Source of the DNA: Polytrichum commune
Lineage: Eukaryota; Streptophyta; Polytrichopsida; Polytrichales; Polytrichaceae
DNA length: 64,000 bases
NCBI GenBank assembly: GCA_950295325.1
Contig: OX485803.1
Location: forward strand, 39,199,554-39,263,553
Direction of reading: 5' to 3'
Positions 27,463 through 43,369 of the stretch are shown here, one piece after another; position 1 is the first letter of the stretch, and every line of letters begins with the position of its first letter. The notes under the pieces are model-generated. The model made no database searches. It saw nothing but the letters and a program-made list of their open reading frames with translations, and was not told the origin of the DNA. A program made the translations under genes and the position numbers.

Positions 27463-28385
27463 ATATAGAACTATAATTGCTCCCTAAAATGCATTGAAAG
27501 AAATCTAGTTAACTATAGTTATTTTGGTAGTTCTTGATTATTTATTCTAAAAATTTCAAGTGATATCAAAATCCTTGACCTGCATTTGAGAAGAAGGTGC
27601 ACAAAATCCAAGAAAGGTTTGGTATAGTAAATAGCCATGGATTGGCATGAGCAAAGTGGACAACTATAATTGTAGTCTTTCATAGTAAAGGACAGAGCCT
27701 CACAGTTCTACCGTTTTCTTGTATTCATTCGAGGTATATTGGATAGATTCCTCTAAAGTGATTGGTAATTCTCCTGAGGTCTCGAACTTCAACCGGTTAT
27801 TTCTTAGACTTGACCAATTCATCTGTAACTAATCACCGGTTCTCCCTGAGCATTGGCGCGAACACGCCAGTTTTTGAAATGAGGTTAGGCACCTGTCAAG
27901 GCCATCATTCTTTTACCTTGGCTTACTAGCTTTTGTTTCGAAACCCCGACATTTTCGAATGTGTGTGGCCTCCTCTTGAAAGAGAGAGTTCGAACAACAA
28001 CATTCTCGCTAGCAAATGCAATGAGTATGGATTTTTTAGTGTTCTTTTTTAGTTCTTTTGTTTGAGACGGAAGGCCAATGATGTTGGCTTGGGATTCGTG
28101 GCGTTTATGTAAACTCAATCATCGTAGATGTAAGGGCTTTGGGAAAACCAAGTTCCCTACAAGGTTGATGGTTGATTCATTCAAACTAGACTCCACTACA
28201 CTTGTTCGGGGTCTTTGATGTTTATATATCGGTCTAAATATAGTCAACTATAGACTATAATATAGTTCAATGTGTTTTCACCTCTGCTGTGAATGAGTTT
28301 AAGTATACACCACAAATCCCTAGCCAATAATTTCTCGCCGATACAAAGCAGTGTAAGTTTCTTCACTTTCTTGTAGTAGCCAAAG

Positions 28386-28472
28386 GAGGGAAGCTATCTT
28401 ATGAGCAGTGAGCGGTGAGCGGTGAGCAGTAACACATGAGCAATGAGCAGTAACATATGAGCAATGATTCCA
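28386..28472 (+). repeat. Left terminal repeat of the 15-kb MULE
   Basis: GAGGGAAGCTATCTTATGAG, then about seven 7-bp units (GAGCAGT, GAGCGGT, GAGCAAT), two of them extended by AACAYAT. Such subterminal repeats are plausible transposase-binding sites. Confidence 0.9.
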
Positions 28473-28619
28473 AATTTAGTAAAGACACACGGGTTTAGGG
28501 TACACAACCAAAATTTTGACAAATTAATTGCATATTTTCAATTGTAAATTGCCAATATTTTAAATGAAGCACAAGTGAAAGGGCCCTATTTCCATAGATC
28601 ATTTAAAACACTTTCAATT

Positions 28620-28842
28620 CATTGCTGATTTTTATTATAATAATCCAAACCAATATATGTCATTTATTGACATCCTTATACATGTAGTTACAACCAACAC
28701 TTGCACAACTACTCACATTCCACAACACCATCAAGCTCAAGTAGGTGCATAACCTCATTATACGTACATGTAGGTGCCATAATTGTGAGCCACTCAAACT
28801 GCTCACGGGTTGAATTAAGGCCCATAATCTACAAATGAAAGG
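28620..28842 (-). pseudogene. Tandem duplicate of the transposase last exon
   Basis: Reads APTCTYNEVMHLLELDGVVE followed by CE and a stop, against APTYTYNEVIRLLELAGIVE in the gene proper. The 3' flank is duplicated too (ATTGCTGATTTTTATTATAA at 28622 and 29202). A possible acceptor (TTTCATTTGTAG) lies at about 28830-28841 on the minus strand. It looks like a local duplication of the 3' end, about 0.5 kb apart, later separated further by the SINE. Confidence 0.75.
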
Positions 28843-28889
28843 AAATTAGATATTAGAAATAGTCAATATGTAGGTAACTACTAGGTTTT

Positions 28890-29095
28890 GAGACATCCGC
28901 CTGTGGATGCGAGTTGTGTAAGAGACTGGTATTAGGTCTGTATCAACCCGGGTTCGAATCCGGTTGGTTACATTGACTGGTGCTATCCCAAATTGAGCTA
29001 GTGATAAAGCAGGAATAATTTATAGGCGGATACCAAGAAGACGTTACTACGTGGATGTGCGTAGAATCTTCTCAATTATTTTTTATTTTTAGAAA
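28890..29095 (+). mobile_element. tRNA-derived SINE, family B
   Basis: A perfect box B (GGTTCGAATCC, 28951-28961) sits in a tRNA-like arm (CCGGGTTCGAATCCGG). A weak box A-like stretch lies about 30 bp upstream, followed by a unique body and an ATTATTTTTTATTTTT tail. It lies between the two copies of the transposase last exon. No clear target-site duplication. Confidence 0.65.
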
Positions 29096-30217
29096 CTTGT
29101 TATTATTTATCCATGTCAATCAATCAAACCGCTCACGGTTGGGTCGTAGTCTAAATAGAAATGAGTTACTGAATCATTTGAAATACTTCCAGCCCATTGC
29201 TGATTTTTATTATAAAAATCCAAACAAAAACATGTCATATTTTGACATTCAAATATATGGTACTTAATAGACCATTTGCAATACTACTCACACTCTACAA
29301 TACCAGCAAGTTCAAGTAGTCGTATGACCTCGTTATAGGTATATGTAGGTGCATGAATGAATTTGTCACTCTCGTAATCCACCTTGCACAAAAATCTAAA
29401 CACATAATAAAGATGTTTACAATACACCCATTTTCCTTTCTTTCCCAATGCATGAGAGGACATTTTCGTGAAATCCGGGCATGTGCAATGCGGGATGTCG
29501 CCAATTGTGACATGGTAGGTGATATCCTGCTTGGAGACAATGTTGATTATCACTCCAAAGCCCGGATATGGAATGGCAGTGACCCCAACCACATAGTAAC
29601 CCTCCATGAGCCCGGCGCTCTCCCATTTGTTTTTGTGATCCGCTAGCGGTGCTGTTGGATTACGACGCACTGTCTTTCCAAACCTGAATGTAGGGTGGGC
29701 GTCCGGGTTTGGTGGCATAGAAAAATGCGAGCGAGGGATGGGGAGAGTTGCGATTGTTGAAAGCCTACGACGAGGGGACAATGCCTCCCTCTGCTGTAGT
29801 TGAAATCCAGCATCTTCAAGTGCCAAAACCTCCTCTCGCGATAGATTGGTACCTATCTTCACCGGCCATGTGTTGGGTACTATAGGCCAGTCCAACACAT
29901 ATTTCTTCTTACTGCCACTCACACAACGTTTGATGTCGTCAGGGCAAAACCAAAATTCATACTCCACATTGTTGGGAGAGCGAAATTCCTTCCTGAGCCC
30001 TTTGTATGTTGGAGCAGGTGTGCCATGTTTCCCAGTCCCGACTTTGGCATTGCACATAGTCCCTGTGATGGCCTGCAGTGCCCAACATCGTTTGGCTGAG
30101 TTGGGTGGTAATCTTGCAATGTGCCACTTGGAAGCAAGACAATCTGTCTCTAACACGGATGTAGTATGAGCCACACCATGAATTGTAGAACTCAATGTGA
30201 GGCCAAACCCCCCACCC

Positions 30218-30430
30218 TTAAGCGTTCGTAGTCCGAGTAGTGGGTTTGGGCTCACATTCCTCCGTGGCATTGGCCTTAGGCTTGGATATGTCCTTTGATG
30301 ACTCAAGTGTCCAATTCCTTGCCTTGTACGCGCAAGCCCAAGCGGATATTCCCTTCTTCCTTTTACCAATGGTTACCTTCACTTCTTTAGGGTCCTTGAG
30401 CTCCTCACTAGGTTTGGTTGTTGAGTCCAT
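30218..30430 (-). CDS. Small 70-codon reading frame in the TGTGAG-type element, product unknown
   Basis: Counterpart of the frame at 22226-22405. Shared features in order are MDST/MEST, VKV, GIS, AC-x-x-KA and WTLE. Lys/Glu-rich with a basic GKRKKG patch; no recognised domain. It lies about 20 bp from the left end of the element. Confidence 0.35.
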   Translation of the reverse strand: MDSTTKPSEELKDPKEVKVTIGKRKKGISAWACAYKARNWTLESSKDISKPKANATEECEPKPTTRTTNA

Positions 30431-30904
30431 AGTGCAAGGATCAACTTTTTAACCTCTACTTAATAATTCAATACACCATGCATGGTATGGAAGCATCCAA
30501 ACACACAAATCTTTATTTGACAATCCAAGTGAATAGTATTAAGAAATACTTTTCTCCAAGGCTTATTGTCTCACAATCAAAGCATCAAGCCCAACGAGTC
30601 TACTCCTCAAGCTTCCTACCCTACCAATCACTTAAACACAACCACCCCAACCTCAAAAACTTAGGAATGTGGCTCTTGGTCCATCACAATCACCAAATCC
30701 TCATTTTTCTATCTTCCTCCATTTTTTTCATTCAAGGTGAGTAGATTCCCCCATAGAAGAACCCCGGCAGTCTCCAACAAGACCCTTCCCGAGGTCTCAG
30801 TCTCAAATCTCCGGGTGTAATTTTGCGCTGTTCTCCAATTGTTCTGCCCGTCATCGCCCGTCACTTTCTTCCTTGAGGCACCTGTTCCCCGCAGACAGAG
30901 ACCA

Positions 30905-31150
30905 GCTCCTTGTTAGCCCTCCTCTAGTTAGGCTAGCTTCGAATTAGCTAGCTCCTGCTTTGCTCGGCCCTTAATTAAGCTGCTCCTAAGTACGGTAGCT
31001 AGCTCCTGATTTGCTTGGCCTTGATTAGCCAGCTCCTACGTAGCTAGCTCCTCTCTGGCCTAACTTCAAATAGTCCGGCTTCTAATTTGCCAGCTCCTTA
31101 GTTAGCTCAACTCGCAATTAGCCTATCTCCTAATTAGCATGGCTCATGAT
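30905..31150 (+). repeat. Degenerate minisatellite
   Basis: Irregular units of about 25-30 bp built on GCTAGCTCCT and TTAGCCAGCTCCT. It occupies the same position in this element as the dimeric minisatellite in the copy at 22094. Confidence 0.7.
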
Positions 31151-32904
31151 TGGCCTAGATGTCCTTTAAACAATTTGTAACCAACTGCCGGTTCTCCCCG
31201 ATCATAGCCACCTTCCCCTAATTAGCTGTCGTCTGGTGATTCCTTTGATCTCAGCTTGGTTAGTGCAGCTCCCTTGATTTAATTAATGCAGTTCCCAGTC
31301 TCGGCTTTAGTTGCCACCAACAGTCTCGGCTCAACATTACAAGGTCACGGCTCTTGGCTCATGTGTGAAGTGGACCTGACCAGCAACTGCAGCTAACTAG
31401 GCCCAGCTGCAGAGCTAATCCCAGCTTACAGCTTACCCAGTCTCGGACTCCCAGCACCTTCTCCAAAAGTCCTGCTCCTTCTTCAACAATTCAGGCCTTT
31501 GGCCAAATATTAAACCATTCAAAATAAGTACCATCATCTAATACCAACTGAGTGCGCCAATTTAATGGTTCAAACTAAGCTCTATAAACTAAATGCTATG
31601 AGGTGAACACTATGAACTAAACACTATCACTAAATGCCTTAAGTCAAATACTATATCTAAGCAATGCAAAACCAATCTAAAAACTAGTTTGCCTCGGTTC
31701 TCTACCTAGAACCTTGCACCACACGTGCACCCTTCTTGCTCCACACACACCCACACACACCACATGAGGTGCCAAGAGGGCAAGAAGAAAAGAGAGCCAA
31801 GAGAGAGAGATTAACTAACTACACTAATTCACCCCACTAATTTCCCACACATTGCCTCTAAGTACAAGAGTTTTTCCTACTAACTAAGTCACATCCTCCT
31901 CATGAGCTCTAAGAGCTTCACTTCCTAACATCAACAAGAGAGAGCGAGAATGAGAGCAATCCCCCACCTTACCTCGGACCCCCTTGGGAGTGCTCAACCC
32001 AAACTTAGCCTCCTCCACTTTCCGCCGCCATAACTTTCTCCCCTTACCTTCCCAAATTGTCACTCACCACTTTAATTCAAACCACGATGCTTAAATCGTA
32101 ATTTGATTGGTGCTTTTAGAATTTGCTTATCCTCCATCTTGCATTCTTCGTTGGACCTTCCCCATTAAGTGGCCACGATGAGGTGGTCCACTTGTGCGCT
32201 CAATGTGATCCTCCATTCATCCCAATTCGAATGCACTTGCTTCTTGAGTCACCTTGGTTGTCTCCATCCATTGTACTAGCCTACTCACTAACCATTTGAT
32301 CTAAGCCTTTCCTATCTACCCTACTTCACTCCAATCCTTTTCTACGGTAAAAATACAATAACCACTCACATGCTAGCCTCTTACAACATTGTACTTCTAA
32401 GGCTAACATTTCACTCTTTTTATATTTTTGTGAAGTGATACACCACTTCAACGCACACCAACTAATATTTTCTAACGCTAAGACTAAATGTGGGCACCGC
32501 TTTGGGCTCACACTCAACGATTCCTCTATGCGTTGACGAGTTGCTCGGGTGTTCGGACGAGCAATGGAATAGTTCACTTTGTCGGGTCGATGAGAGTCAC
32601 AATCAGCACCCGGTGGTAGGTTGAGTTTGCGTTTGGTGGAACCAAAGAGCTCTGACCCTTCCAATGCACAATCTCTAGTGTTGACGTCTTCTGCCCCTGG
32701 ATAAGACTTCATGGCATCGGCCAACATTTTTGGATCTCCACACTTGGCAGCCGCTTTGAGTTTCAAGGATGCCGAATCAGGACCTTTACCATCAGACCCC
32801 CCTTTCAACCATGTCCGGTAATTTGCAATTTGCATGAAGGCACGGATCATGTTGTCCACTGTAGCTTCATATAAACAAATCATCTTGTTGCCGGACTGTT
32901 GGAG

Positions 32905-33300
32905 CCATTTGTTGTGTACAGTCTCTGCAAGGTTGCATGTTGGCATTTCCGCACGCTCTTCTATTGTCATATCCTATGAACAACACACAAATACAAGGAT
33001 AAGACAAACATAAGATAGATTATATATCTAGGTTTGGGTCGTTCAACCCAAAATGGCTGCCACGTTTGGGTCGAACGACCCAAACTGCCTACAAGGTTTG
33101 GGTCGTTCGATCCAAACTGCCTACAAGGTTTGGATCGAACAACCCAAATTGCCTACAAGGTTTGGGTCGAACGACCCAAACTGTTTGTTGTTTGTTATGT
33201 ACAGTCTCTGCAAGGTTGCATATTGGCATTCCCGCACGCTCTTTTATTGTCATATCCTATGAACAACACAGAAAGACAAAAATAAGAAAAACATAGGATA
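32905..33300. repeat. Duplicated exon-2 start flanking a palindrome array
   Basis: About 110 bp covering the splice acceptor and first codons of transposase exon 2 (32905-33012) is repeated at 33184-33300 (shared GTACAGTCTCTGCAAGGTTG). The array at 33031-33183 lies between the copies. The upstream copy could act as a decoy acceptor. The in-phase acceptor I used is at 32973. Confidence 0.8.
33031..33183. repeat. Tandem palindrome array D (GTTTGGGTCG half-site), 5 units, transposase intron 1
   Basis: Five units of about 32 bp. Each has half-sites GTTTGGGTCG and CGACCCAAAC separated by 2 bp, with the linker TGCCTACAAG. The same palindrome is tandemly repeated in the neighbouring gene at 37938-38090. 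Because it is palindromic it opens several reading frames, which are not genes. Confidence 0.92.
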
Positions 33301-35340
33301 TATTACATTGAATAATGAAGTTTGATATGTACTTACAAGTAGCATATGGCCACCCCATTGTCTGTAACGAAAGTGCCAAAATCCCAACCACTCTGAAAGG
33401 CCAAGGATGCCTTCTTCGGAGGCAGCTCCAGATGACAACCACCAAGAACGAATAACATGGTACTTGGTCTCAGCGTCGTCCATTGTTTTCGCGTCTTTGT
33501 AATCTTTGCATATTTGTTTGTGTTGAAATTGCAAGGATGGTTTGATATACTTTTGGGTCACCTTATCCAAGCTTGCGGACCAATGAAAAATACATGTACA
33601 TTCACGTGCAACCATGGGTAGACTTGGATCACCATCCCCGTAAATCGCCCTCACCGCATTCCAATTAGCTTGAGCACTATCAGCCATAAACCCTTTGAAG
33701 TTTACGTTTGGTACATCATTATCTGCCATGACAACATTCAAATTTTCCCAAAAAAAAATTTGCGCTGCACCATCTTCAGATTGCATGTCACAACACGCAA
33801 TAGTCAACACTTTACAGTATCGACTGTCGTACACATGGCAAGCCATGGTCGTCCAGTCCTTCAAACGTTTGGCATTGTCAAACATAATCCATGAATTCTC
33901 CATATCCCCACCAACTTGCATCCTCTTCACAAGCTCCACACCACTACCTGGAAGGTCTACAGACATCTTAAAAACAAACACATTGTCCTTTGACTGCCCT
34001 GGGAACCGACTACCATAGACGAATTTGAAAGCAGAGTGGTCTTTAAGCGCCATAATACTATCCATAGTTCCCATTCCACTACGCAAAAAACGCTTTGATC
34101 CAGATACAAAGTTACGACAATTTGGAGACACAAGAGTGCTGAATTTTTCCATGACGACCTCTAGGCATGAACCAACCAAGTGATGGCCTTCGACATTTGC
34201 GGGAGATTTGAGAAGGTAATCGGCCAAGAATTGTTTGCTCGCCGCCATAACTATGGCTGAATTTTTTGTTGTGGGTGTTTTCAATACTTCATTTGCAACG
34301 CATTGGTATGCCATGTCCAATGATTCACGGCATGTGCCATTGGCCACAGGGTGATCATGTACACCAAGATGAATGCAAGCCCTGGACATTCCAACGGATG
34401 TGGAGTGAATGTATATGATTCGAGCATTACACAAAGTAATGCACACAGGTGTGGAACGACATACCTTACACTCGACAGTGGACTTAGTAGGGGGAACAAC
34501 ACCCACAGCAAATGGGATAGGAGTTGAACCGGCCCATTCAGTGTTGTTCCGGAGGCCCCCATTGCGATTCATGTAATCACAGTAGTCATTATGACATTGG
34601 AGATGACCAGCACAAGTAGAGCGCCGGAAGGACAGTACAAAGTCATTTTGGATATTCGTGGTTTGGTGGTGCACCAAGGGTGACCGTCGCACATCTTGTC
34701 CATGCCGTCCATTGAGCGACCATACGTACTTGGAGCTTTGACTGCCATAGGAGGCAAGAGAAATAAAACATCACCATTAAAAGAAGATGGTAAGTATTTG
34801 ACTTCACGAACATCTATACTGTCAAAATCAATGGATGCAAGATCGGACTTTGATTTTTTTTCTTGACTTTGTCAGCTTCAAGGCATCAACTATAGTCAAC
34901 CCTGTAGATGAAGGTGAAGGGTGTAGTAGAGGACGTTGAGAAGGTGAAATTTGGAGAACCACCTTCTTGTACATAAGACCGCAAGGGGATTTGGTTACAT
35001 GCATAGGAAGTTGGGAAATAGTAGAATGAACACTTCTAAATGGAAATGGCGATGTGTTTGAAAGATCAACAGATGCACAAATGTCATCTTCTGAATCTGA
35101 TAGCACAAATACACTATTATCAAGGGGTTCCACCTTAACAGGTGTGATAGAGGGAATTCGAACTGTGGATGTACCGGATTCGTTTGTCAAAATGACAGTT
35201 GAAGCTTGCATTTGAAACTCAGAAAGTCCTATCACCCTAAATGAACCAGGTCCTAAGATCCACATAAAACCAACATCAGTTCTATTTTTTTGGAACCAAA
35301 ATCGTTTCATACACCTCTCCATCTGCAGAGTACATCTCAT

Positions 35341-35996
35341 GCTCTAAATACATGGTTCCTATCTAGAGGTTGAATCTCAAACTAAGTAAATCCTCTGAAA
35401 CATTCACATGACCATCATCTTGGAGTGGCAAGATGAAGGGAACAAAAGATCCATGAGCTCTAATGGTAGCCATAGAAAATCAAAAGACCATATGAACAAC
35501 ACATCACAAAAATATGGGTGAATGTTGCTTTTGTATAGAGTTGTGTGAAGAAATGAATGGAAATGAAAACGTGTGATACAATAATGGATGGAAATGAAAG
35601 CGTGTGATACATAACATCTAATAATATAGAAGTGGACATAATACAATAATAGTCAAAGACTATTTACGAGCAAGATATACACAAAACGGCGTCAAATACT
35701 AAAAGGATTGATAGAAATTTAAAATATATATATGTGTGGACTGACGCAGATGTAGAAAGAATTAAAATTGGTTGGAAAAATAAATTATTGATCATTATGA
35801 ATAGAACAAAGTAGGTGTCAGAAAATTTTGGCGGATATAACAAAAATAAACACATAATGACAAACGCGTTGAAATATCTCGTTCATTGAACGCCAATTAC
35901 AACATGTGATCGTAATATACGCCGGATTATGTGAGATAGATACATTGGAAGAATAAATGATAGTACCTGATAGAAAACATATCATAGACACCAACG
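35341..35996. promoter_or_regulatory. Divergent intergenic region of the MULE
   Basis: 656 bp between the start codons of the two divergent genes, AT-rich, with a TATATATATGTG stretch near 35728-35740. Position implies a shared promoter region. I see no further motif that settles the transcription starts, and upstream non-coding exons are possible. Confidence 0.45.
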
Positions 35997-36334
35997 ATGG
36001 TAGACGATGTAGAAAGAACACCCGTGAGGCCGAAGAGAAGACGTAGGAAAGCTTTGTATTTCACTTCCGAAAAAAAAAGATTCAGACTCAGTGTGGGAAA
36101 AAATGATGCAAAAAAAGAAGAGAAAAGAAACTTGTTGAGTATGGTAGAAGAAACTGTGAAGACACTGGATTTTGATGCGATGGAGGATGATGAAGGTGCA
36201 AAGAGCAAAGAAGATGTAGACGATCGTATATCAGAGTCCGAATTAAAGACGGGTTCAAAGAAGACAATAAACAAAAAGGTAAGTCGGTTCAACGTTCACA
36301 TAATTTGATAGTGCATAAGTTGTAAGTTAGGACG

Positions 36335-37095
36335 GAGAACCTTGTACGTTCACTCACATGTCATGTAGTACCAATTTATAGAGGTTATAAATTGGAGAGG
36401 AAAAACCCTATACGTTAATGCACATGGTATATAACAGAAATTTAGGAAGGCTAGAAGTCAGGAGGAGAACGCACTTAAGAGCAACTTAAGAGACGAGAAG
36501 TTGGGAGGCGAAATCATGTGCGTTAACGCACATGATTTATAAGAGCAATTTAAGAGGCGAGAAGTTGGGAGGTGAAACCCTGTACGTTAACGCACAGGGT
36601 TTATAAGAGCAACTTAGGAAGGCCAAAGTTGGGAAGAGAAACACTGTGCGTTAACGCACAGGGTTTATAAGCACAACTTAGGAAGGCCAAAGTTGGGAGG
36701 AGAAACCCTGTGCGTTAACGCATAGGGTTTGTAAGAGCAACTTAATAAGGCGAAAAGTTGGGAGAAAAAACCCTGTGCGTTAACGCACAGGGTTTATAAG
36801 AGCAACTTAGAAGGCAAAAAGTTGGAAGGCGAAACCCTGTGCGTTAACGCACAGGGTTTATAAGAGCAACTTAGGAGACAAAAAATTGGAAGGCGAAATC
36901 CTGTGCGTTAACGCACATGGTTTATAAGCGCAACTTAGGAAGGCCAAAGTTGGGAGGAGAAACCCTGTGCATTAACGCACAGGGTTTATAAGCGCAACTT
37001 AGGAAGCCCAAAGTTGGGAGGAGAAACCTTGTGCGTTAACGTACATGGTTTGTAAGCGCAACTTAGGAAGGCCAAAGTTGGGAGGTAAAACGACT
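36335..37095. repeat. Tandem palindrome array A (GTGCGTTAACGCAC core), about 11 units, intron 1
   Basis: Unit of about 64 bp: palindrome CCCT-GTGCGTTAACGCAC-AGGG, then TTTATAAGAGCAACTTAGGA and AGGCCAAAGTTGGGAGG. Cores are spaced about 64 bp apart from 36527 to 37035; the first two or three units (36340-36470) are worn. The palindrome centre is often perfect while linkers vary, as if the palindrome were the maintained part. Confidence 0.92.
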
Positions 37096-37504
37096 AGGAG
37101 AGCCTAAAATTAAAACAAATATCTATTGTATGAATTTAAATCGATGTTCAGAACATAGGAGCAAAAAAACTATTCAAAACGAGGTTAGAATGCAAGAAAT
37201 GACAAATATGACTACTCAAGTATTCATGCAATACGTTATAGGAGCTAGAAAATGACACAAAATAGCATAAATTTTTTTTTGCCCCGAAATCCAAAATTTA
37301 CGAGGTGGCCCAAAACAAGGAAATAGATAGAAGAATGAGAAAAGAAAATCATTTCAAACCAAAACAAAATATCAGAAGAATTTGTAGCTACGGAGATTTA
37401 GATAATATAGCATATTTTTGTTTTTTTTTTTATCCCATTAGCATTTTTTTCCAGATTTGACAAGTTTTGGCAAATCTACGAATTCCAGACCCTCAAATTC
37501 ACGT

Positions 37505-37735
37505 CTCGGCCCTGTGCGTTAACGCACAGGGTCTATGTGCTAACGCACAGGCCTTATGTGCTAACGCACAAGGTGTATGCGGTAACGCATAGTGGCTAGA
37601 AAGTTGCCAGCGCAGACCCTGTGCGTTAACGCATAGGGTCTACTTGCCTAGCTAGAGGCTTCGCAAAGTTGGGCAAGTAGACCCTGTGCGTTAACGCACA
37701 GGGTCTGCGCTGGCAAATTTCTAGCGGCTATGCGG
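37505..37735. repeat. Palindrome array B with 52-bp inverted repeat, intron 1
   Basis: Six more copies of the GTTAAC-type core (two of them GCTAAC, one GGTAAC). The last two lie in a larger inverted repeat: 37596-37647 and 37673-37724 are reverse complements with about three mismatches and a 25-bp loop, each containing a whole palindrome. This would extrude as a cruciform of nested hairpins. Confidence 0.9.
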
Positions 37736-37937
37736 GGCCACGAAGAGCCATGCTAAATATGGCTGCAGGGACAAGTAGTATAAATTGTCACAACCCCAAA
37801 GCATTTAGTCTTTTTTGTCTCCTCTGTCGGACCTGAGCTCATCGCTGCAAGCTCTCTCATCAACAGGTGCAGTACAAGGTTTGTTGGCACTTTCGTGGTG
37901 ACTGGGTAATTGCGCATAATCAGGCGTAAATTACGGA

Positions 37938-38090
37938 CAGTTTGGATCGGCCGACCCAAATTGTGTGCCTAGTTTGGGTCGATCGATCCAAACTGTGTGC
38001 CTAATTTGGGTCGGCTGACCCAAACTGTGAGCCTAGTTTGGGTCGGTCGACCCAAACTGTGAGCAGGGTTTGGGTCGTTCAACCCAAACC
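37938..38090. repeat. Tandem palindrome array C (GTTTGGGTCG half-site), 5 units, intron 1
   Basis: Five units of about 32 bp with half-sites GTTTGGGTCG / CGACCCAAAC and the linker TGTGTGCCTA or TGTGAGCCTA. Same palindrome as array D in the transposase intron. Confidence 0.92.
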
Positions 38091-38237
38091 TCGCGTCCAA
38101 CTTTGTTAGACCTGTAGTTGGACGCACAGGGTCTGGCCTTGTAGTTTTGGGGTGAGCGGCCACCCTAATCGTACAATATTTGAAGGTGCAAATGACTGTG
38201 TCTAGAATAATTTTTGTCATTCTTCCCTGTGTTCGTG

Positions 38238-38292
38238 GTATTCTGTTGTTATTGTTGTTGTTATTGTTGTTGTTATTGCTGTTGTTTTTGTA
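38238..38292. repeat. TTGTTA/TTG microsatellite in intron 1
   Basis: TTGTTATTGTTGTTGTTATT-type repeat. Confidence 0.9.
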
Positions 38293-38556
38293 ATGTTATT
38301 GCTAATGTGTTGCTACTGGTTTTGAAATATTTATGAAACTTATTTCATTTGTTTTAGGACCAATCAATGGATTTGAAAAGAACGACTCTTATTTCTACTG
38401 ATGATGATTCCACAATGCATTCAACTCAAGATCGTCCATCTCAATAAGTTCATCATCATCAGAACATATCATCAAATCTTCATAATAAAAAAAAGAAAAA
38501 AATAAATGAATCCCTCGATGATTTTGACTCGGATGAAGATAATGATGGTGACAATA

Positions 38557-39529
38557 TGTCGCAACCCTTGCTAGGTCCTTTAATAATCTTGCCAATTTTC
38601 AATTCTAGCAAAGGTTACGAGTCGCTAACCCTTCGCATTCCGCCATGCTAATGGATAGCTCCTCTTACCTCGGACCAATAGTTCATAGGAGGGAACCAAC
38701 CCTCCTACTTTGCTTTCGGGACTCACCCCTTAATCGGTAACCCATTTCCCCAATGTGGACTTCCATCCATGGAAGTCCAATCCTATGTTGATCATCGCGT
38801 TGCCGGAGCAACACTACAACAACCCGAACCATACTAGGCAACTATGGCCTCACAATAGGCCAAAGCCCATGGAGGCCTTGCCGTTCGGCCTCGGGTGGGT
38901 GAGGCCACACCACCTCACCCATATAAGCCTCTAGGACTCTACGCGGGGCCCCTACCCCACCGTCAACCAACCTCTTGTCTCTCTACCAAGAGTTGGGGCC
39001 AAGTGGACATTTTCCCTTAGCCGCTGGGCCTAGAAGCCCCCAGCAGCTTCAGACCATTATAACTTCCTTGTATGATGTCTGATTCCAGCAACCAACCACT
39101 CCATCTTTATCTACGCTTCACGTAGATGCCGATGGACTCCTCACTTGCCCCATTCGGGCAAGTGGTGAGGAAGTTATGCCTGTTTGAACCTTGGCAGTCC
39201 CGGGAATCACTCCCAGGCACTGCTGTAGCAGGGCGCTGTCCCGGGACAGCGCCCCACTCAAATGGCCATAACTCCTAGCTCACACCTCGGATTGAGGTGT
39301 TCTTGAGCATTCTAGGATCACCACGCCATGAGCTACGCATAGCTCATGGCCTTACCGTTGTGCCTCCTAGTCTTCGTGGATGGGAGGCGTTCCCAACGCC
39401 CGGGGACCTCATCCACACTTGGATCACTTGGGCCCTCTCACCAAAGGCGCCACAAGTCCCGGGTGTCACTCCGGGGTCCCCCTTGTGCCCATGGTGTTTC
39501 GGGCACTCCTCATGGAGAGGTGCGCGACA
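38557..39529. mobile_element. 973-bp solo-LTR-like insertion in the methyltransferase gene
   Basis: Starts TGTCGCAACC and ends GTGCGCGACA (TGTCGC/GCGACA inverted ends), flanked by a perfect 5-bp duplication, CAATA (38552-38556 and 39530-39534). Removing it plus one CAATA restores the frame across GDN|KSYQDKVW. It is clearly more GC-rich than its surroundings, with internal inverted repeats such as CTGTCCCGGGACAG. No internal coding region; the best reading is a solo LTR. Confidence 0.88.
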
Positions 39530-42500
39530 CAATAAATCTTATCAAGACAAAGTGTGGGAGCTTACGAACAAACGAAAGGTCAATTCCACTTCCACAATTT
39601 CTTCAATCCGTGCTGGACCTAATGCTCGCTTGCGTGTACCCTTATGTCGCATGGTTTCTATGCCGATTGTGCGTTCTGCTTTGAAGGGTAACATTACTAA
39701 ATTGGAGGCTGATTTTTTCAATGGTTATCGTGATGGTGACCGTGTGTTTTATATATCGGCCACCGATTCTAAGGAAAACTTTCAATTCGTGGATGATGAG
39801 GTTCGCGCATCTTGGAGCCCAAATTGGGCTCAAGCCAATGCCCTGTTTGAATCTCAATTGGATACAGATTTGTCATTGACGTCATACAAGAATAAGATAT
39901 TTTTTATATGGGATGGAAATCACAGATTTTTTGCTTGGAAAAATTATATTGACCGCGTATATACCGAAGATTATGAACGTCATGTCTTTGTGGATTCTAT
40001 CATTTTGGCGCCCCAGCCTGACGACATTCCAAGTTTGTTGACTGCTATGCATGACATCAATAAGTAATGTTCTTACCTATTTTTTTACACTTATTTCTAG
40101 TCTATATTTTGTTTCCCAAATTATATCATCATGAATCTAATCAATTTAATGTTTTTTTCAGGTCAACCGAAAATTCTCACGTATCCACCAATTTGGTACA
40201 TACTTTATATCGGATGCAAAGTATTGGCACCATGCCTTTGACTTCCTTCAGAAAGCAACTGGATCCAAAGAGTTATAAACGATGTGAGGAGAAGTCCGTC
40301 GAAACTTGGTATTCTTTGACACGACCAATTTTTTTGGATTACATGTACAGTGTAAGTTCTTCTACCATTGCTAATATGTGCCTTATGTTTATTCACCTTC
40401 ATTTTACATTACATCTATATGAACTTATAAATATTGACTTTTGTTTGATTTTTCAGCAAGAACTTGCTGAGGCTAGCGATATTGCTCTCAACCAGTACAA
40501 TGAAATTCATCCTCTTGAACGGACATCAGACGGAGTTTCAAAAGCAATGTCCGCAGCTGTCAACAAAAAACGTGCAATTTTATCTTCTAGTTTTACGAAA
40601 CAACTAGCGATTGCCGATATCAACCTTACCTCTGCTTTCCTTGAAGAAGTTAAGCACCATTGGGGTTCATTTTCGGTGCCTGAAATGCTACAAGAGAAAC
40701 TTCATCGTGTTGCTGTCAGTAATGTGGATACAGAAGTCAAAGTTGGATGGCTCAAGCTTTGGAATGACAATAGATTTGACAAAGATGCATTGCATTTCCC
40801 GAAATCGCCCCTCTCTGATTCTGCACTTGATGATTGGTTATCAAAATCTACATATTGGGCACAGTTGGAAAAAAAGACTATCGAAGAGCTTCAAAGTATT
40901 ATTTCATCTCCTCTTCAGTTGCCTGCAGATGTGCCTACTCTCTCCGAGTATATCCAAACCTGGAAGTTTGCGGCTTTCAATTCAATATTCTATCGTGAAT
41001 TCCAAAGCAGAAAAGTTAAAAAACACAACGGTTGGAATGAGCAACCTAATATTGATCTTGCTATGAAACGTGTATTATACAGATACAACCTAATCTTATT
41101 ATTTTTTTGATTTTTTTTTATTCCATTTGTCAAATTGTCATGGAATATTTGACTTACAATATTTTTGTGTGTAGGTATTTTCGATATGTTTTGATTCCAC
41201 ATAAATGCGTTATAGGGGAACCTCGTTTTTTCCCAAATTGGCGTGACACTGGTGCAGGAGATTCATGCATGTTCACTACTGAGATTTGTTTGGATTGGTC
41301 GCTCCCACACTATGAGGATTGTGGTTGGTATCTTGATTGTCCTAAGGATGCATGTCCGTCAAGTGAGAAGACAATCCGTCAGATAAATGATGCTAAAAAT
41401 GTGGATCCTCGTGATACTGCAATTTTGCAAGCACAAATTGTGCAGCTTAAACTTAGAGAGCCAGAACCAAAAGAGACAAAACATCGTTAGAGGAAACATG
41501 TTCTTGAAACCAAAATACAAGATCAATCGGAAATTTAACAACATGAAGAATTGCTTGTTCTTTCCAATGATTTGGATAAGAATCCACTTGGAGGCGAAAG
41601 TTCAAAGTCTGGGTGCGATGTATTGGAATTCCATTACTCGAGCACCTATGACGCTATTCATCGTGCGCCAAAGAATGTTTTGAGAAAAGAGTTATTCATA
41701 CTGAAAAACTTTCTCACGCTCTCTTTTGCTCGATCTACTGCTGTTAAGAACAAGTCTGAAGGGGTTGAAGTAGGCCCTCCTGAGTGGATCCAATGGCGGA
41801 CATTTTTTGAAAACGTAAGTATTATTGTTTTGGTATTTTCTGTAATGTTCTTACTTTCATTTGGATTTTATTTTGTGTCTTATATTGTGATATATTGTGG
41901 TATTTCAGTTCAAAGACAATCGCGAATTTCATGTCATGGGAAGTCCGACTCCATTTGCCGTTGACTTGGTTTTTCTGCAATTTCCCGACGGTCTTGACTT
42001 CAACCTCTCCAATAGACCTGCTGAAATTCCTCTTTGGAATAAATATGACAAGAACTGGATGGTTGCAACAATGTCCTTGTGCAAGTCCATCTTGTCTGAA
42101 GATGGCGTCCTCATAGTATTTTCTGCTATCGATATGCAAACCAAGAAGGTTTTGAATTCAACCTTACACAACGGCAACATGAAAGTTCTTAGGACTTTTA
42201 TTTGCCTCAATTCGTACATGGTGTTCAAGGATCCGGAGTCTCCAACCTACACCGTAAGTATAACATATCACAATTGTTTCTATTTAATTATTTTGGTGTT
42301 ATTTGCATTGTATATAGTTTTAACACAATTTATATTTTTTTGTAGACTCCGGCATTTATGGCTCATGTCTTGGTAAGGGATTTTACTACCACAAAATCCA
42401 CGAGACAACCAAACTCCATTTTTTTTGGCACTGGATTGAAAAGCAAAAACTTGCTTTTCAATTTTGTGGATGAAAAAAACATGCTTCTTCAAAAATCGGG

Positions 42501-43283
42501 AAGACCTTGGAGGGGGGCATATCAAAAATCGCCGCGTTTTTTTCAAGATCTTATTGAATTGTACACCATCGAATGGACGCGTTGTTGATTTGACATGTTC
42601 CACTGGAGCTTCTATCCTAGCAACACGCGCATGTGGCAGACATCTTCTTGCATTTGAGGGTGATAATGACATGTTTGAGCACATATTGAAACCGCTTTTG
42701 GAAAACGTTTTGAAAGAGGGGTCATCTAAGGAGAATATACAAGATCTCACAAAAGAAGATGATAACCTCTCAGATGAGGAGATGCTTGAATTTGAGTGTA
42801 AGTAAGTTTTAATACAATAAATTTTTATTCAATTCATTCGTTTCATTCAATTCATTGGTTCATTTTTATTTCTTCACATTATTTACATGTTTCATCGATT
42901 TGATTTCAGGAATACGATTGGAAAGAGGACATGTCTCCCGTTTTGGGCACATAGACAATTCCTACGAAGTCCAAGCCGTAGCCCGCGTCTCCCATCATAT
43001 GCCGAAAATGTTGCAATTGCAATGTTGAATCTCGAAGATTCGGATCCAAATGAAAAATCTTGCTATAGTTCCAAAATCAATTCGCAATGCAAAGGTGCTC
43101 GAATATATATAGATGACGAGGCAAAAGATAGTTTCATGTCTAGTGCTACTACTGATGAATAAATTTTTGGACTTCATGTTGTTTATCCCTCTCAACCCTC
43201 TTATTACTAAACCCTAAAATCATCATTTTTAAGGCCACAATTCCACGGTTATAGGATATTGGTGGCCCTATTACCAAAAATTT

Positions 43284-43359
43284 CATCTTCCTCACTGCTC
43301 ATAAGTTACCGCTCATCGCTCACCGCTCATTGCTCACCGCTCATAAGATAGCACTCCCC
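43284..43359 (-). repeat. Right terminal repeat of the 15-kb MULE
   Basis: Read inward on the minus strand: GGGGAGTGCTATCTTATGAG, then about six GAGCGGT/GAGCAAT heptamers, one extended by AACTTAT as at the left end. The first seven bases differ at four positions from the left end; GCTATCTTATGAGC is identical. Confidence 0.9.
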
Positions 43360-43369
43360 GTAGCCAAAG

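What the first reader, a model, noticed from the sequence alone, without database searches (positions are those of the whole stretch)
28386..43359. A 15-kb Mutator-like element that carries a ParB-like/DNA-methyltransferase gene beside its transposase
Seen: a perfect 10-bp target duplication, inverted ends with shared GAGC-type heptamers, a zinc-finger/MULE/SWIM transposase on one strand and a multi-exon ParB-like plus methyltransferase-like gene on the other, back to back. Known: some plant MULEs carry accessory genes (mudrB of MuDR; VANB and VANC of VANDAL, where VANC counters silencing by binding motif arrays). I do not know of a described MULE with a ParB-methyltransferase gene. Inference: the accessory protein could modify or bind the element's own DNA to help transposition or avoid silencing.
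Basis: partly seen in the sequence, partly recalled or inferred. Interest (0 to 1): 0.95.

Follow-up and report, generated by a model that had tools for sequence, protein, structure and literature searches.

The report
Jumping gene with swappable methylase-like gene
A large, many-copy jumping gene in a green plant carries, besides its own mover gene, a conserved gene related to bacterial DNA methyltransferases that may recognise palindromic tags inside the element itself, and related elements appear to have exchanged this gene.

Summary
The structure holds; two of the labels do not. Window 28386-43359 is one copy of a recent, many-copy DNA transposon with a 10-bp duplication (12 copies compared, plus four divergent lineages of the same genome). 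A transposase and, on the other strand, a methyltransferase-type gene are native to it: both occur in four of five lineages read (transposases about 50% identical), and in the window's lineage both show purifying selection. The methyltransferase domain is a beta-class N6-adenine type (profile relatives DpnA, CcrM) with an altered DPPY motif in every lineage, so binding without catalysis is plausible. 'ParB' failed every profile test; 'Mutator-like' rests on the duplication length and motifs. Two features are additional. The accessory gene's introns hold lineage-specific palindromes (TGTGCGTTAACGCACA here, TGTGCGCTRGCGCACA-type in the nearest sister). And the transposases of these two lineages are 89% identical while their accessory proteins are about 30% identical; 9 of 11 sister-type transposases sit with a sister-type accessory gene, so it was probably exchanged. 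The logic resembles VANC of Arabidopsis VANDALs. Accessory genes called ParB-methyltransferase are already reported in algal transposons. Function is inferred. New variant of a known kind.

The parts
28376..28385 (.). target site duplication, left copy GTAGCCAAAG
28386..28467 (.). left terminal inverted repeat GAGGGAAGCTATCTTATGAGC followed by GAGC-type heptamers
29284..35476 (-). transposase gene (about 1,170 aa in the composite, several exons): conserved Cys/His positions, D..CxxH core, SWIM-like CxC..CxH C-terminal part; the start near 35476 is read by eye
   Evidence: ORFs; core exon in 11 of 12 copies; weak SWIM match E 0.06-0.07, below cut-off; homologues in F2, F3 and F4
30196..32511 (.). 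private insert splitting the SWIM-type exon of the window copy; absent from the 11 other copies
33030..33183 (.). 32-bp tandem repeat with GGGTCGNNCGACCC-type palindromes, in a transposase intron
35997..36278 (+). accessory exon A; all accessory exon borders are inferred without transcripts
   Evidence: conserved in copies
36476..37091 (.). 64-bp tandem array (9.5 units) around the palindrome AAACCCTGTGCGTTAACGCACAGGGTTT, in accessory intron 1
37500..37725 (.). further TGTGCGTTAACGCACA-type palindromes with different flanks
37939..38089 (.). 32-bp tandem repeat with GGGTCGNNCGACCC-type palindromes
38358..40063 (+). accessory exon B with the region read as ParB-like (DGNHRxxAW motif); interrupted in this copy by the insert 38557-39528
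38557..39528 (.). private insert; a 94% relative lies at another site inside copy C1_2119
40162..40351 (+). accessory exon C
40457..41079 (+). accessory exon D (end uncertain)
41175..41814 (+). accessory exon E (start uncertain; two stops in this copy)
41909..42253 (+). accessory exon F: methyltransferase domain with degenerate motif IV (VDLVFLQFPDG)
42346..42801 (+). accessory exon G: methyltransferase domain, motif I VVDLTCSTGAS; 1-bp frameshift in this copy; end uncertain by 4 bases
42910..43162 (+). accessory exon H and stop
43292..43359 (.). right terminal inverted repeat with GAGC-type heptamers
43360..43369 (.). target site duplication, right copy GTAGCCAAAG

Best explanation
A two-gene Mutator-like transposon. 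SHOWN: a transposase and a methyltransferase-type accessory gene lie back to back between shared ends in many copies and in several lineages; within the window's lineage both are kept by purifying selection; lineages carry different palindromes in the accessory gene's introns; two lineages with nearly the same transposase have very different accessory genes. INFERRED: the accessory gene was exchanged between lineages; its protein is a sequence-specific DNA-binding protein, built on a beta-class N6-adenine methyltransferase fold with a degenerate catalytic motif IV, that binds the palindromes of its own element, probably as a dimer. In doing so it marks the element as self and keeps it expressible or mobile by opposing host silencing, the job VANC does for VANDAL elements. 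Exchange of the accessory gene and change of the array motif would let sister elements escape one another's or the host's control.
For: Both genes (ParB-like exon and transposase core) in 9 of 12 copies read, methyltransferase exons in 12 of 12, with the picking bias told in the observation check. pN/pS of the divergent copy C7_384 against the others: ParB-like exons 0.21, exon D 0.21, exon E 0.30, methyltransferase exons 0.48, transposase segments 0.50, 0.26 and 0.55, against 0.96 and 1.22 in two non-coding controls. F2, F3 and F4 have both genes in the same arrangement. F3 has ends of the same style and a 10-bp TSD GTAATTCACT, read by eye; for an F2-type copy the junction predicted from its right flank was found once without mismatch on the expected side. 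Palindrome: GCGTTAACGC 4-15 times in 12 of 12 copies; in 100 distinct units symmetry is 75-100% at each position out to +/-14 and 28% at +/-15; the core is kept in C7_384 although repeat unit and spacers differ; CTGTGCGTTAACGCACAG at 502 places in the genome, reversed control 0; 3 of 3 further clusters fetched lie in copies with both genes. F2-type: 16 related sites in 3 of 3 copies, 14 with centre [CT]TRG, no GCGTTAACGC. Exchange: F1-F2 transposase 89%, but ParB-like 35%, E block 29%, methyltransferase 30%, no closer than F1-F3 (transposase 52%; 42, 34, 25%); 9 of 11 F2-type transposases have an F2-type accessory gene 8.1-9.0 kb away on the same strand. Motif IV: QFPD (F1), DIPD (F2, 2 of 3 copies read), DIPD (F3), DLPE (F4), DIPE (F5).
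Against: No binding, expression or methylation data. Nothing ties the palindromes to the accessory protein rather than to the transposase: F1 and F2, whose transposases are 89% identical, share the outer half-site TGTGCG although their accessory proteins differ; only F4 and F5, with near-identical E blocks (63 of 64) and the same palindrome, point the other way, and F5's transposase was not in the part fetched. One F2 copy (L045) reads DIPYG, so catalysis is not excluded. F3's palindrome evidence is thin (two CTCGTTGACGAG sites); F3, F4 and F5 rest on one copy each; an exact-palindrome shuffle test was clear only for F1 and F2 and found no exact site in two further F2-type copies. The unit set was chosen by its core, so positions +/-1 to +/-5 are biased, and units are related. 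None of the 12 F1 accessory genes is free of stops, frameshifts or lost exons, so F1 may be inactive now. Both structure models failed.
Confidence: 0.45

Rival explanations
1. Active self-marking: the accessory protein is a working N6-adenine (or N4-cytosine) methyltransferase with an unusual motif IV that methylates palindromes such as GTTAAC inside the element, and the mark protects or activates it.
For: Fold and SAM-site region recognisable; F2 keeps a near-canonical DLFVGTGAS; F2-F5 keep the first Asp of motif IV and one F2 copy reads DIPYG. Palindromes centred on TTAA in F1 are plausible adenine targets.
Against: The aromatic residue of DPPY is replaced by Asp/Glu in every lineage (one F2 copy excepted); the window's lineage has also lost the Asp (QFPD); the first motif I glycine is lost in four of five.
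Confidence: 0.2
2. Transposition cofactor, like mudrB (recalled): the palindromes are transposase or host-factor sites, or hairpin-forming intron RNA, and the accessory protein helps integration; there is no anti-silencing role.
For: F1 and F2 share nearly the same transposase and the same half-site TGTGCG despite different accessory proteins.
Against: The arrays lie in accessory introns, not near the ends, and the GAGC heptamers already look like end-binding sites; F4 and F5, with near-identical accessory E blocks, share their palindrome.
Confidence: 0.25
3. Passenger: a methyltransferase-like gene captured once by a Pack-MULE-like event, without function for the element.
For: Many copies carry broken accessory genes; two of 12 copies lack the ParB-like exon.
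Against: pN/pS well below 1 with controls near 1, presence across lineages at about 50% transposase identity, replacement by another version rather than loss in F2.
Confidence: 0.05
4. Unrelated neighbours: two overlapping mobile elements that happen to lie together.
For: The window copy does contain nested inserts.
Against: The same arrangement between the same ends in 9 of 12 copies and in further lineages, with TSDs.
Confidence: 0.01

Closest known systems
VANDAL elements and their VANC anti-silencing proteins (Arabidopsis; PMC5735166, passages read)
   Same: Accessory gene beside the transposase in a plant DNA transposon; short motifs in tandem repeats in non-coding parts of the element; motif differs between related elements; related accessory proteins act on different spectra of elements.
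   Different: No VANC sequence was compared. Here the accessory protein is derived from an N6-adenine methyltransferase, the motifs are long palindromes, and the accessory gene appears exchanged between lineages. Function untested.
Sola1-1_Ec32 of the brown alga Ectocarpus and the green and red algal transposons cited with it (PMC12477816; section 5 read, passages)
   Same: Large DNA transposon with a gene on the strand opposite to the transposase, 1104 aa there, described as ParB-like plus N4/N6 DNA methyltransferase.
   Different: Different transposase superfamily (Sola1) and host. Palindrome arrays, motif IV degeneration and exchange are not mentioned in the section read.
Beta-class N6-adenine DNA methyltransferases (CcrM, DpnA, MboIIA, RsrI)
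   Same: Profile hits DpnA 6e-7 (C-terminal quarter of the profile) and CcrM 4e-4 (profile positions 9-226 of 235); PF01555 above cut-off in F2 and F5; profile-profile match to the C-terminal parts of seven phage-type ParB or ParB-methyltransferase proteins, E 2.8e-9.
   Different: Motif IV DPPY altered in all lineages; motif I partly degenerate; fused to a long region for which no relative was found here.
Virus-integrated Mariner transposons with methyltransferase genes (PMC3627910, passages read)
   Same: DNA transposons that encode methyltransferases.
   Different: Mariner elements in viruses; other methyltransferase types, beside an endonuclease gene.
MuDR with mudrB (maize), recalled, not searched
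   Same: Two-gene Mutator element with about 9-bp TSDs, accessory gene of uncertain function.
   Different: mudrB is not recalled as a methyltransferase-type protein.
Fungal DNA transposons encoding TET/JBP dioxygenases (PMC12730594, search listing only)
   Same: DNA-modification enzymes adopted by DNA transposons.
   Different: Different enzyme and elements.

Membership tests
Mutator-like elements (MULE) | 8-11-bp target duplications (usually 9; recalled) | tested here: met
   8 of 12 copies 10 bp perfect, 2 of 12 9 bp; F3 10 bp by eye; one F2-type copy 10 bp by prediction
Mutator-like elements (MULE) | MULE/Transposase_mut catalytic domain | tested here: inconclusive
   No Pfam MULE model matched F1, F3 or F4; a D..CxxHW pattern (FMADSAQANWNAV..CLFHW) is conserved, its MULE likeness recalled; structure model useless; no PDB relative
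Mutator-like elements (MULE) | SWIM zinc finger in the transposase | tested here: inconclusive
   PF04434 E 0.06-0.07, 13 bits against a cut-off of 19.6; no match in the F3 C-terminal part; CxC..CxH pattern visible
Mutator-like elements (MULE) | Terminal inverted repeats | tested here: met
   52-nt arms, 81% complementary, with shared outer ends
Beta-class N6-adenine methyltransferase | PF01555 N6_N4_Mtase above curated cut-off | tested here: inconclusive
   F2 38.3 and F5 30.5 bits pass the 26.7 cut-off; F1 21.8 and F3 19.9 do not; F4 was not scanned
Beta-class N6-adenine methyltransferase | Catalytic motif IV [DNS]PP[YFW] (recalled) | tested here: not met
   QFPD, DIPD, DIPD, DLPE, DIPE in F1-F5; one of three F2 copies DIPY
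ParB N-terminal (ParB_N) | Profile similarity to ParB_N | tested here: not met
   No Pfam ParB hit for F1, F3, F5; no chromosomal hit in the genome at E 1 (4 matches, all on small contigs); hhalign against 10 prokaryotic-type ParB sequences E 0.6, Prob 0.1%; no ParB among PDB hits. Only the DGNHRxxAW motif recalls ParB box II (recalled)
VANC | VANC protein domain | not tested
   No VANC sequence was compared
VANC | Motif arrays in element non-coding DNA that differ between related elements | tested here: met
   clear for F1 and F2, weaker for F3-F5
VANC | Causes loss of DNA methylation and silencing at cognate elements | not testable with these tools
   needs plants, methylomes and transgenes

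The most novel reading that the evidence does not exclude
A self-recognition module in plant DNA transposons, evolved independently of VANC: a bacterial-type N6-adenine methyltransferase turned into a catalytically dead, sequence-specific reader of palindromic arrays, carried as an exchangeable cassette (accessory gene plus array) between sister transposons that keep the same transposase and ends.
Probability: 0.35. Interest if true: 0.87.

Novelty: new variant of a known kind. Interest (0 to 1): 0.73.

Why it matters
If the inference holds, plant transposons have solved the problem of resisting silencing specifically for themselves at least twice with different proteins. The family also gives a natural experiment: two element lineages with nearly the same transposase and ends but different accessory proteins and different palindromes, in one genome, so specificity can be tested directly by swapping accessory proteins and arrays. 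It could also give a function to the ParB-methyltransferase genes reported in algal transposons, and a possible sequence-specific epigenome tool.

Tried and rejected
Rejected: chance neighbours or passenger gene. ParB homology: Pfam, genome-wide PF02195, profile-profile and PDB profile searches all failed; kept only as a motif resemblance. Empty site: the joined flanks of the window copy gave no spanning match; the right flank is itself repetitive. Very fast divergence of the accessory gene instead of exchange: disfavoured because pN/pS within F1 is low and F1-F2 is no closer than F1-F3. Structure prediction: both jobs gave mean pLDDT 35 and 32 and were not used; no fold search was run. Relatives of the accessory protein outside the genome: only weak methylase matches among phages (68 records, best listed E 4e-3), none confirmed in viral contigs. 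Padloc was not used. My estimate of the left end of the F2-type copy at C4:20.34 Mb was about 1.4 kb off; the stretch fetched on that estimate (L066) was not analysed, and the end came from the pattern search. The exact-palindrome shuffle test gave F1 6 and F2 4 sites (shuffle means 0.01 or less), but F3 0, F4 1, F5 1 and 0, and 0 in two other F2-type copies, whose sites are imperfect.

The literature was searched only in the held open-access library (one search was on the host). None of the listings or passages I saw describes this gene in a Mutator-like element. The two works cited for green and red algae were not read (Petroll 2025 not held; Iyer 2011 not tried). PMC6446971 (Mutator evolution) was seen in passages only; the word methyltransferase does not occur in its main text.

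Full report
CHECK OF THE OBSERVATION. The element spans 28386-43359 with a perfect 10-bp duplication GTAGCCAAAG on both sides. It is not a single oddity: its left 1 kb has 40 scored loci, the window and 39 others at 95-99% (904 candidates), and its right 1 kb 40 loci, the window and 39 others at 98-99% (783 candidates); counts are lower bounds. Twelve left/right pairs lie within 16 kb on one strand: the window copy and the 11 copies fetched. The set was thus chosen for having both ends, and the right-end query contains accessory exons G and H, so it cannot show how often copies lack the accessory gene. Eight of 12 have a perfect 10-bp TSD, two a 9-bp TSD, one 10 bp with one mismatch, one none. 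All 12 have methyltransferase exons, 10 the ParB-like exon, 11 the transposase core exon, 9 both of the last two. The window copy is longer than most because of two private inserts.

THE HOST. The genome has 408 Mb in 64 contigs, seven of them seen here as chromosome-sized. A 146.6-kb contig carries intact rbcL followed by trnR-CCG and what I read as the start of accD, so the host is a green plant, by my recollection of gene order probably a bryophyte or another early-diverging streptophyte. I did not identify the species.

THE TWO GENES. The transposase reads on the minus strand from about 35476 to 29284. Conserved Cys/His positions, a D..CxxH core and a C-terminal CxC..CxH pattern are visible, but Pfam gives only a weak SWIM match and no MULE model, so the superfamily label rests mainly on the 10-bp TSD. 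The accessory gene reads on the plus strand in about eight exons (35997-43162), roughly 1,170 aa in the composite; splice sites are inferred without transcripts. Its C-terminal part is a beta-class N6-adenine methyltransferase domain: PF01555 E 2e-4 in the window's lineage, below cut-off, above the cut-off in F2 and F5, below it in F3; a profile of five lineages finds DpnA (6e-7, C-terminal quarter) and CcrM (4e-4, nearly the whole profile) among solved structures; the profile-profile comparison with the C-terminal parts of seven phage-type ParB or ParB-methyltransferase proteins gives E 2.8e-9. The region named ParB-like has a conserved DGNH...AW motif but fails every profile test for ParB that I ran.

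SELECTION. For the most divergent of the 12 copies (C7_384) against the others, pN/pS (uncorrected, Nei-Gojobori counting) is 0.21 for the ParB-like exons, 0.21 for exon D, 0.30 for exon E, 0.48 for the methyltransferase exons, and 0.50, 0.26 and 0.55 for three transposase segments (N-terminal, core, C-terminal), against 0.96 and 1.22 in two non-coding controls; a third control had one synonymous-class change only (ratio 4.1) and says nothing. Over all pairs the coding values are 0.39-0.53 except 0.82 for the transposase N-terminal segment, controls 0.94-1.00. The accessory protein has thus been kept by selection about as strongly as the transposase. This was measured in F1 only.

RELATED LINEAGES. 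PF01555 in the genome gave 83 matches, 80 of them on chromosomes C1-C7. Five lineages were read: F1 (window), F2 (C1:9.65 Mb), F3 (C2:37.59 Mb), F4 (C4:52.49 Mb), F5 (C7:23.0 Mb). F2, F3 and F4 have the same back-to-back arrangement with homologous transposases; F5's transposase was not in the part fetched. The F2 copy read lacks the left end, but four of four F2-type right ends seen match the window's style. F3 has ends of the same style and a 10-bp TSD, and F5's right end has similar heptamers. For an F2-type copy (L049) the ten bases beyond its right end predicted a left junction of TSD plus left end; that 25-mer occurs once without mismatch, at C4:20343622, on the expected side, about 1.4 kb beyond my estimate, giving an element of about 15.4 kb.

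EXCHANGE OF THE ACCESSORY GENE. F1 and F2 transposases are 89% identical (391 of 439) while the other five transposase pairs are 49-54%. Their accessory proteins are 35% (ParB-like), 29% (E block) and 30% (methyltransferase) identical, no closer than F1 and F3 (42, 34, 25%). Exchange between elements explains this better than fast divergence; no tree was built.

PALINDROME ARRAYS. Intron 1 of the accessory gene holds a 64-bp tandem array around AAACCCTGTGCGTTAACGCACAGGGTTT. All 12 copies have 4-15 GCGTTAACGC sites. Among 100 distinct units, picked for a perfect GTTAAC and at most one mismatch in the ten-base core, symmetry is 75-100% at each position out to +/-14 and 28% at +/-15; at +/-13, 25 of 100 units show a compensated change (6.5 expected, at most 12 in 500 shuffles; units are related, so this is descriptive). 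In C7_384 the repeat unit is partly 53 bp and the spacers differ, yet the core is the same. The 18-mer CTGTGCGTTAACGCACAG occurs at 502 places in the genome, its reversed control at 0; three clusters outside the earlier lists were fetched and all three lie in copies with both genes. F2-type copies instead carry sites of the type TGTGCG[CT]TRGCGCACA (16 sites in 3 of 3 copies, 4-7 each, 14 of 16 with that centre; no GCGTTAACGC). F4 and F5 carry TGTCTCGGNNCCGAGACA (3 and 7 sites), F3 only two CTCGTTGACGAG sites; the F1 motifs counted are absent from F3-F5.

MECHANISM. Degeneration of motif IV in all five lineages (QFPD, DIPD, DIPD, DLPE, DIPE instead of DPPY; one of three F2 copies DIPY), together with a conserved fold and selection, suggests that the methyltransferase has become a binding module. 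Palindromes suit a dimer. Lineage-specific arrays in non-coding DNA and related accessory proteins with different specificity are the logic reported for VANC: VANC21 binds YAGTATTAY in non-coding tandem repeats of VANDAL21, and VANC6 acts through different motifs on different elements (PMC5735166, passages). The step from arrays to anti-silencing is inference. The main weakness is that F1 and F2 share the outer half-site TGTGCG along with their transposase, so the arrays could belong to the transposase.

WHAT IS KNOWN. [quoted passage not shown] The bare combination is therefore not new. New here, as far as the listings and passages I saw show, are its occurrence in an element with Mutator-type duplications in a green plant, the altered catalytic motif, the lineage-specific palindrome arrays and the exchange of the accessory gene between near-identical transposases.

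Noticed in passing
window 38557-39528; copy C1_2119 (L016): The insert in exon B of the window copy has a 94% relative at a different place inside another copy of the same transposon, so it is probably mobile itself.
   Followed up: partly
G000 chromosomes: Dozens of weak chromosomal methyltransferase-type matches (119-aa, 153-aa and 98-aa open frames among them) suggest more methyltransferase-bearing transposons in this genome; one locus each of the 119-, 153- and 98-aa types was read (F4, F5, F3).
   Followed up: partly
L041, L042, L043 (contigs C10, C12) and contig C23: Small contigs carry phage-like or bacterial genes, including a single-exon ParB-methyltransferase (501-aa open frame) on C12; probably contaminants or associated microbes.
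   Followed up: partly
C3:14137891 and C2:70106055: Fragments of rbcL on nuclear chromosomes (one open over 181 aa), likely plastid DNA insertions.
   Followed up: no
L046 1-372 (C5:16.86 Mb): An F2-type copy lies next to leucine-rich repeats of the type seen in plant resistance proteins (read by eye).
   Followed up: no
window 33030-33183 and 37939-38089: A second family of palindromic 32-bp repeats (GGGTCGNNCGACCC) occurs in both genes' introns in F1 but has no exact site in copy C7_384.
   Followed up: partly
window 41066-41180: The intron between exons D and E has no clear GT donor at the expected place in the copies read (ACAGATACAACC); the exon borders there are uncertain.
   Followed up: partly
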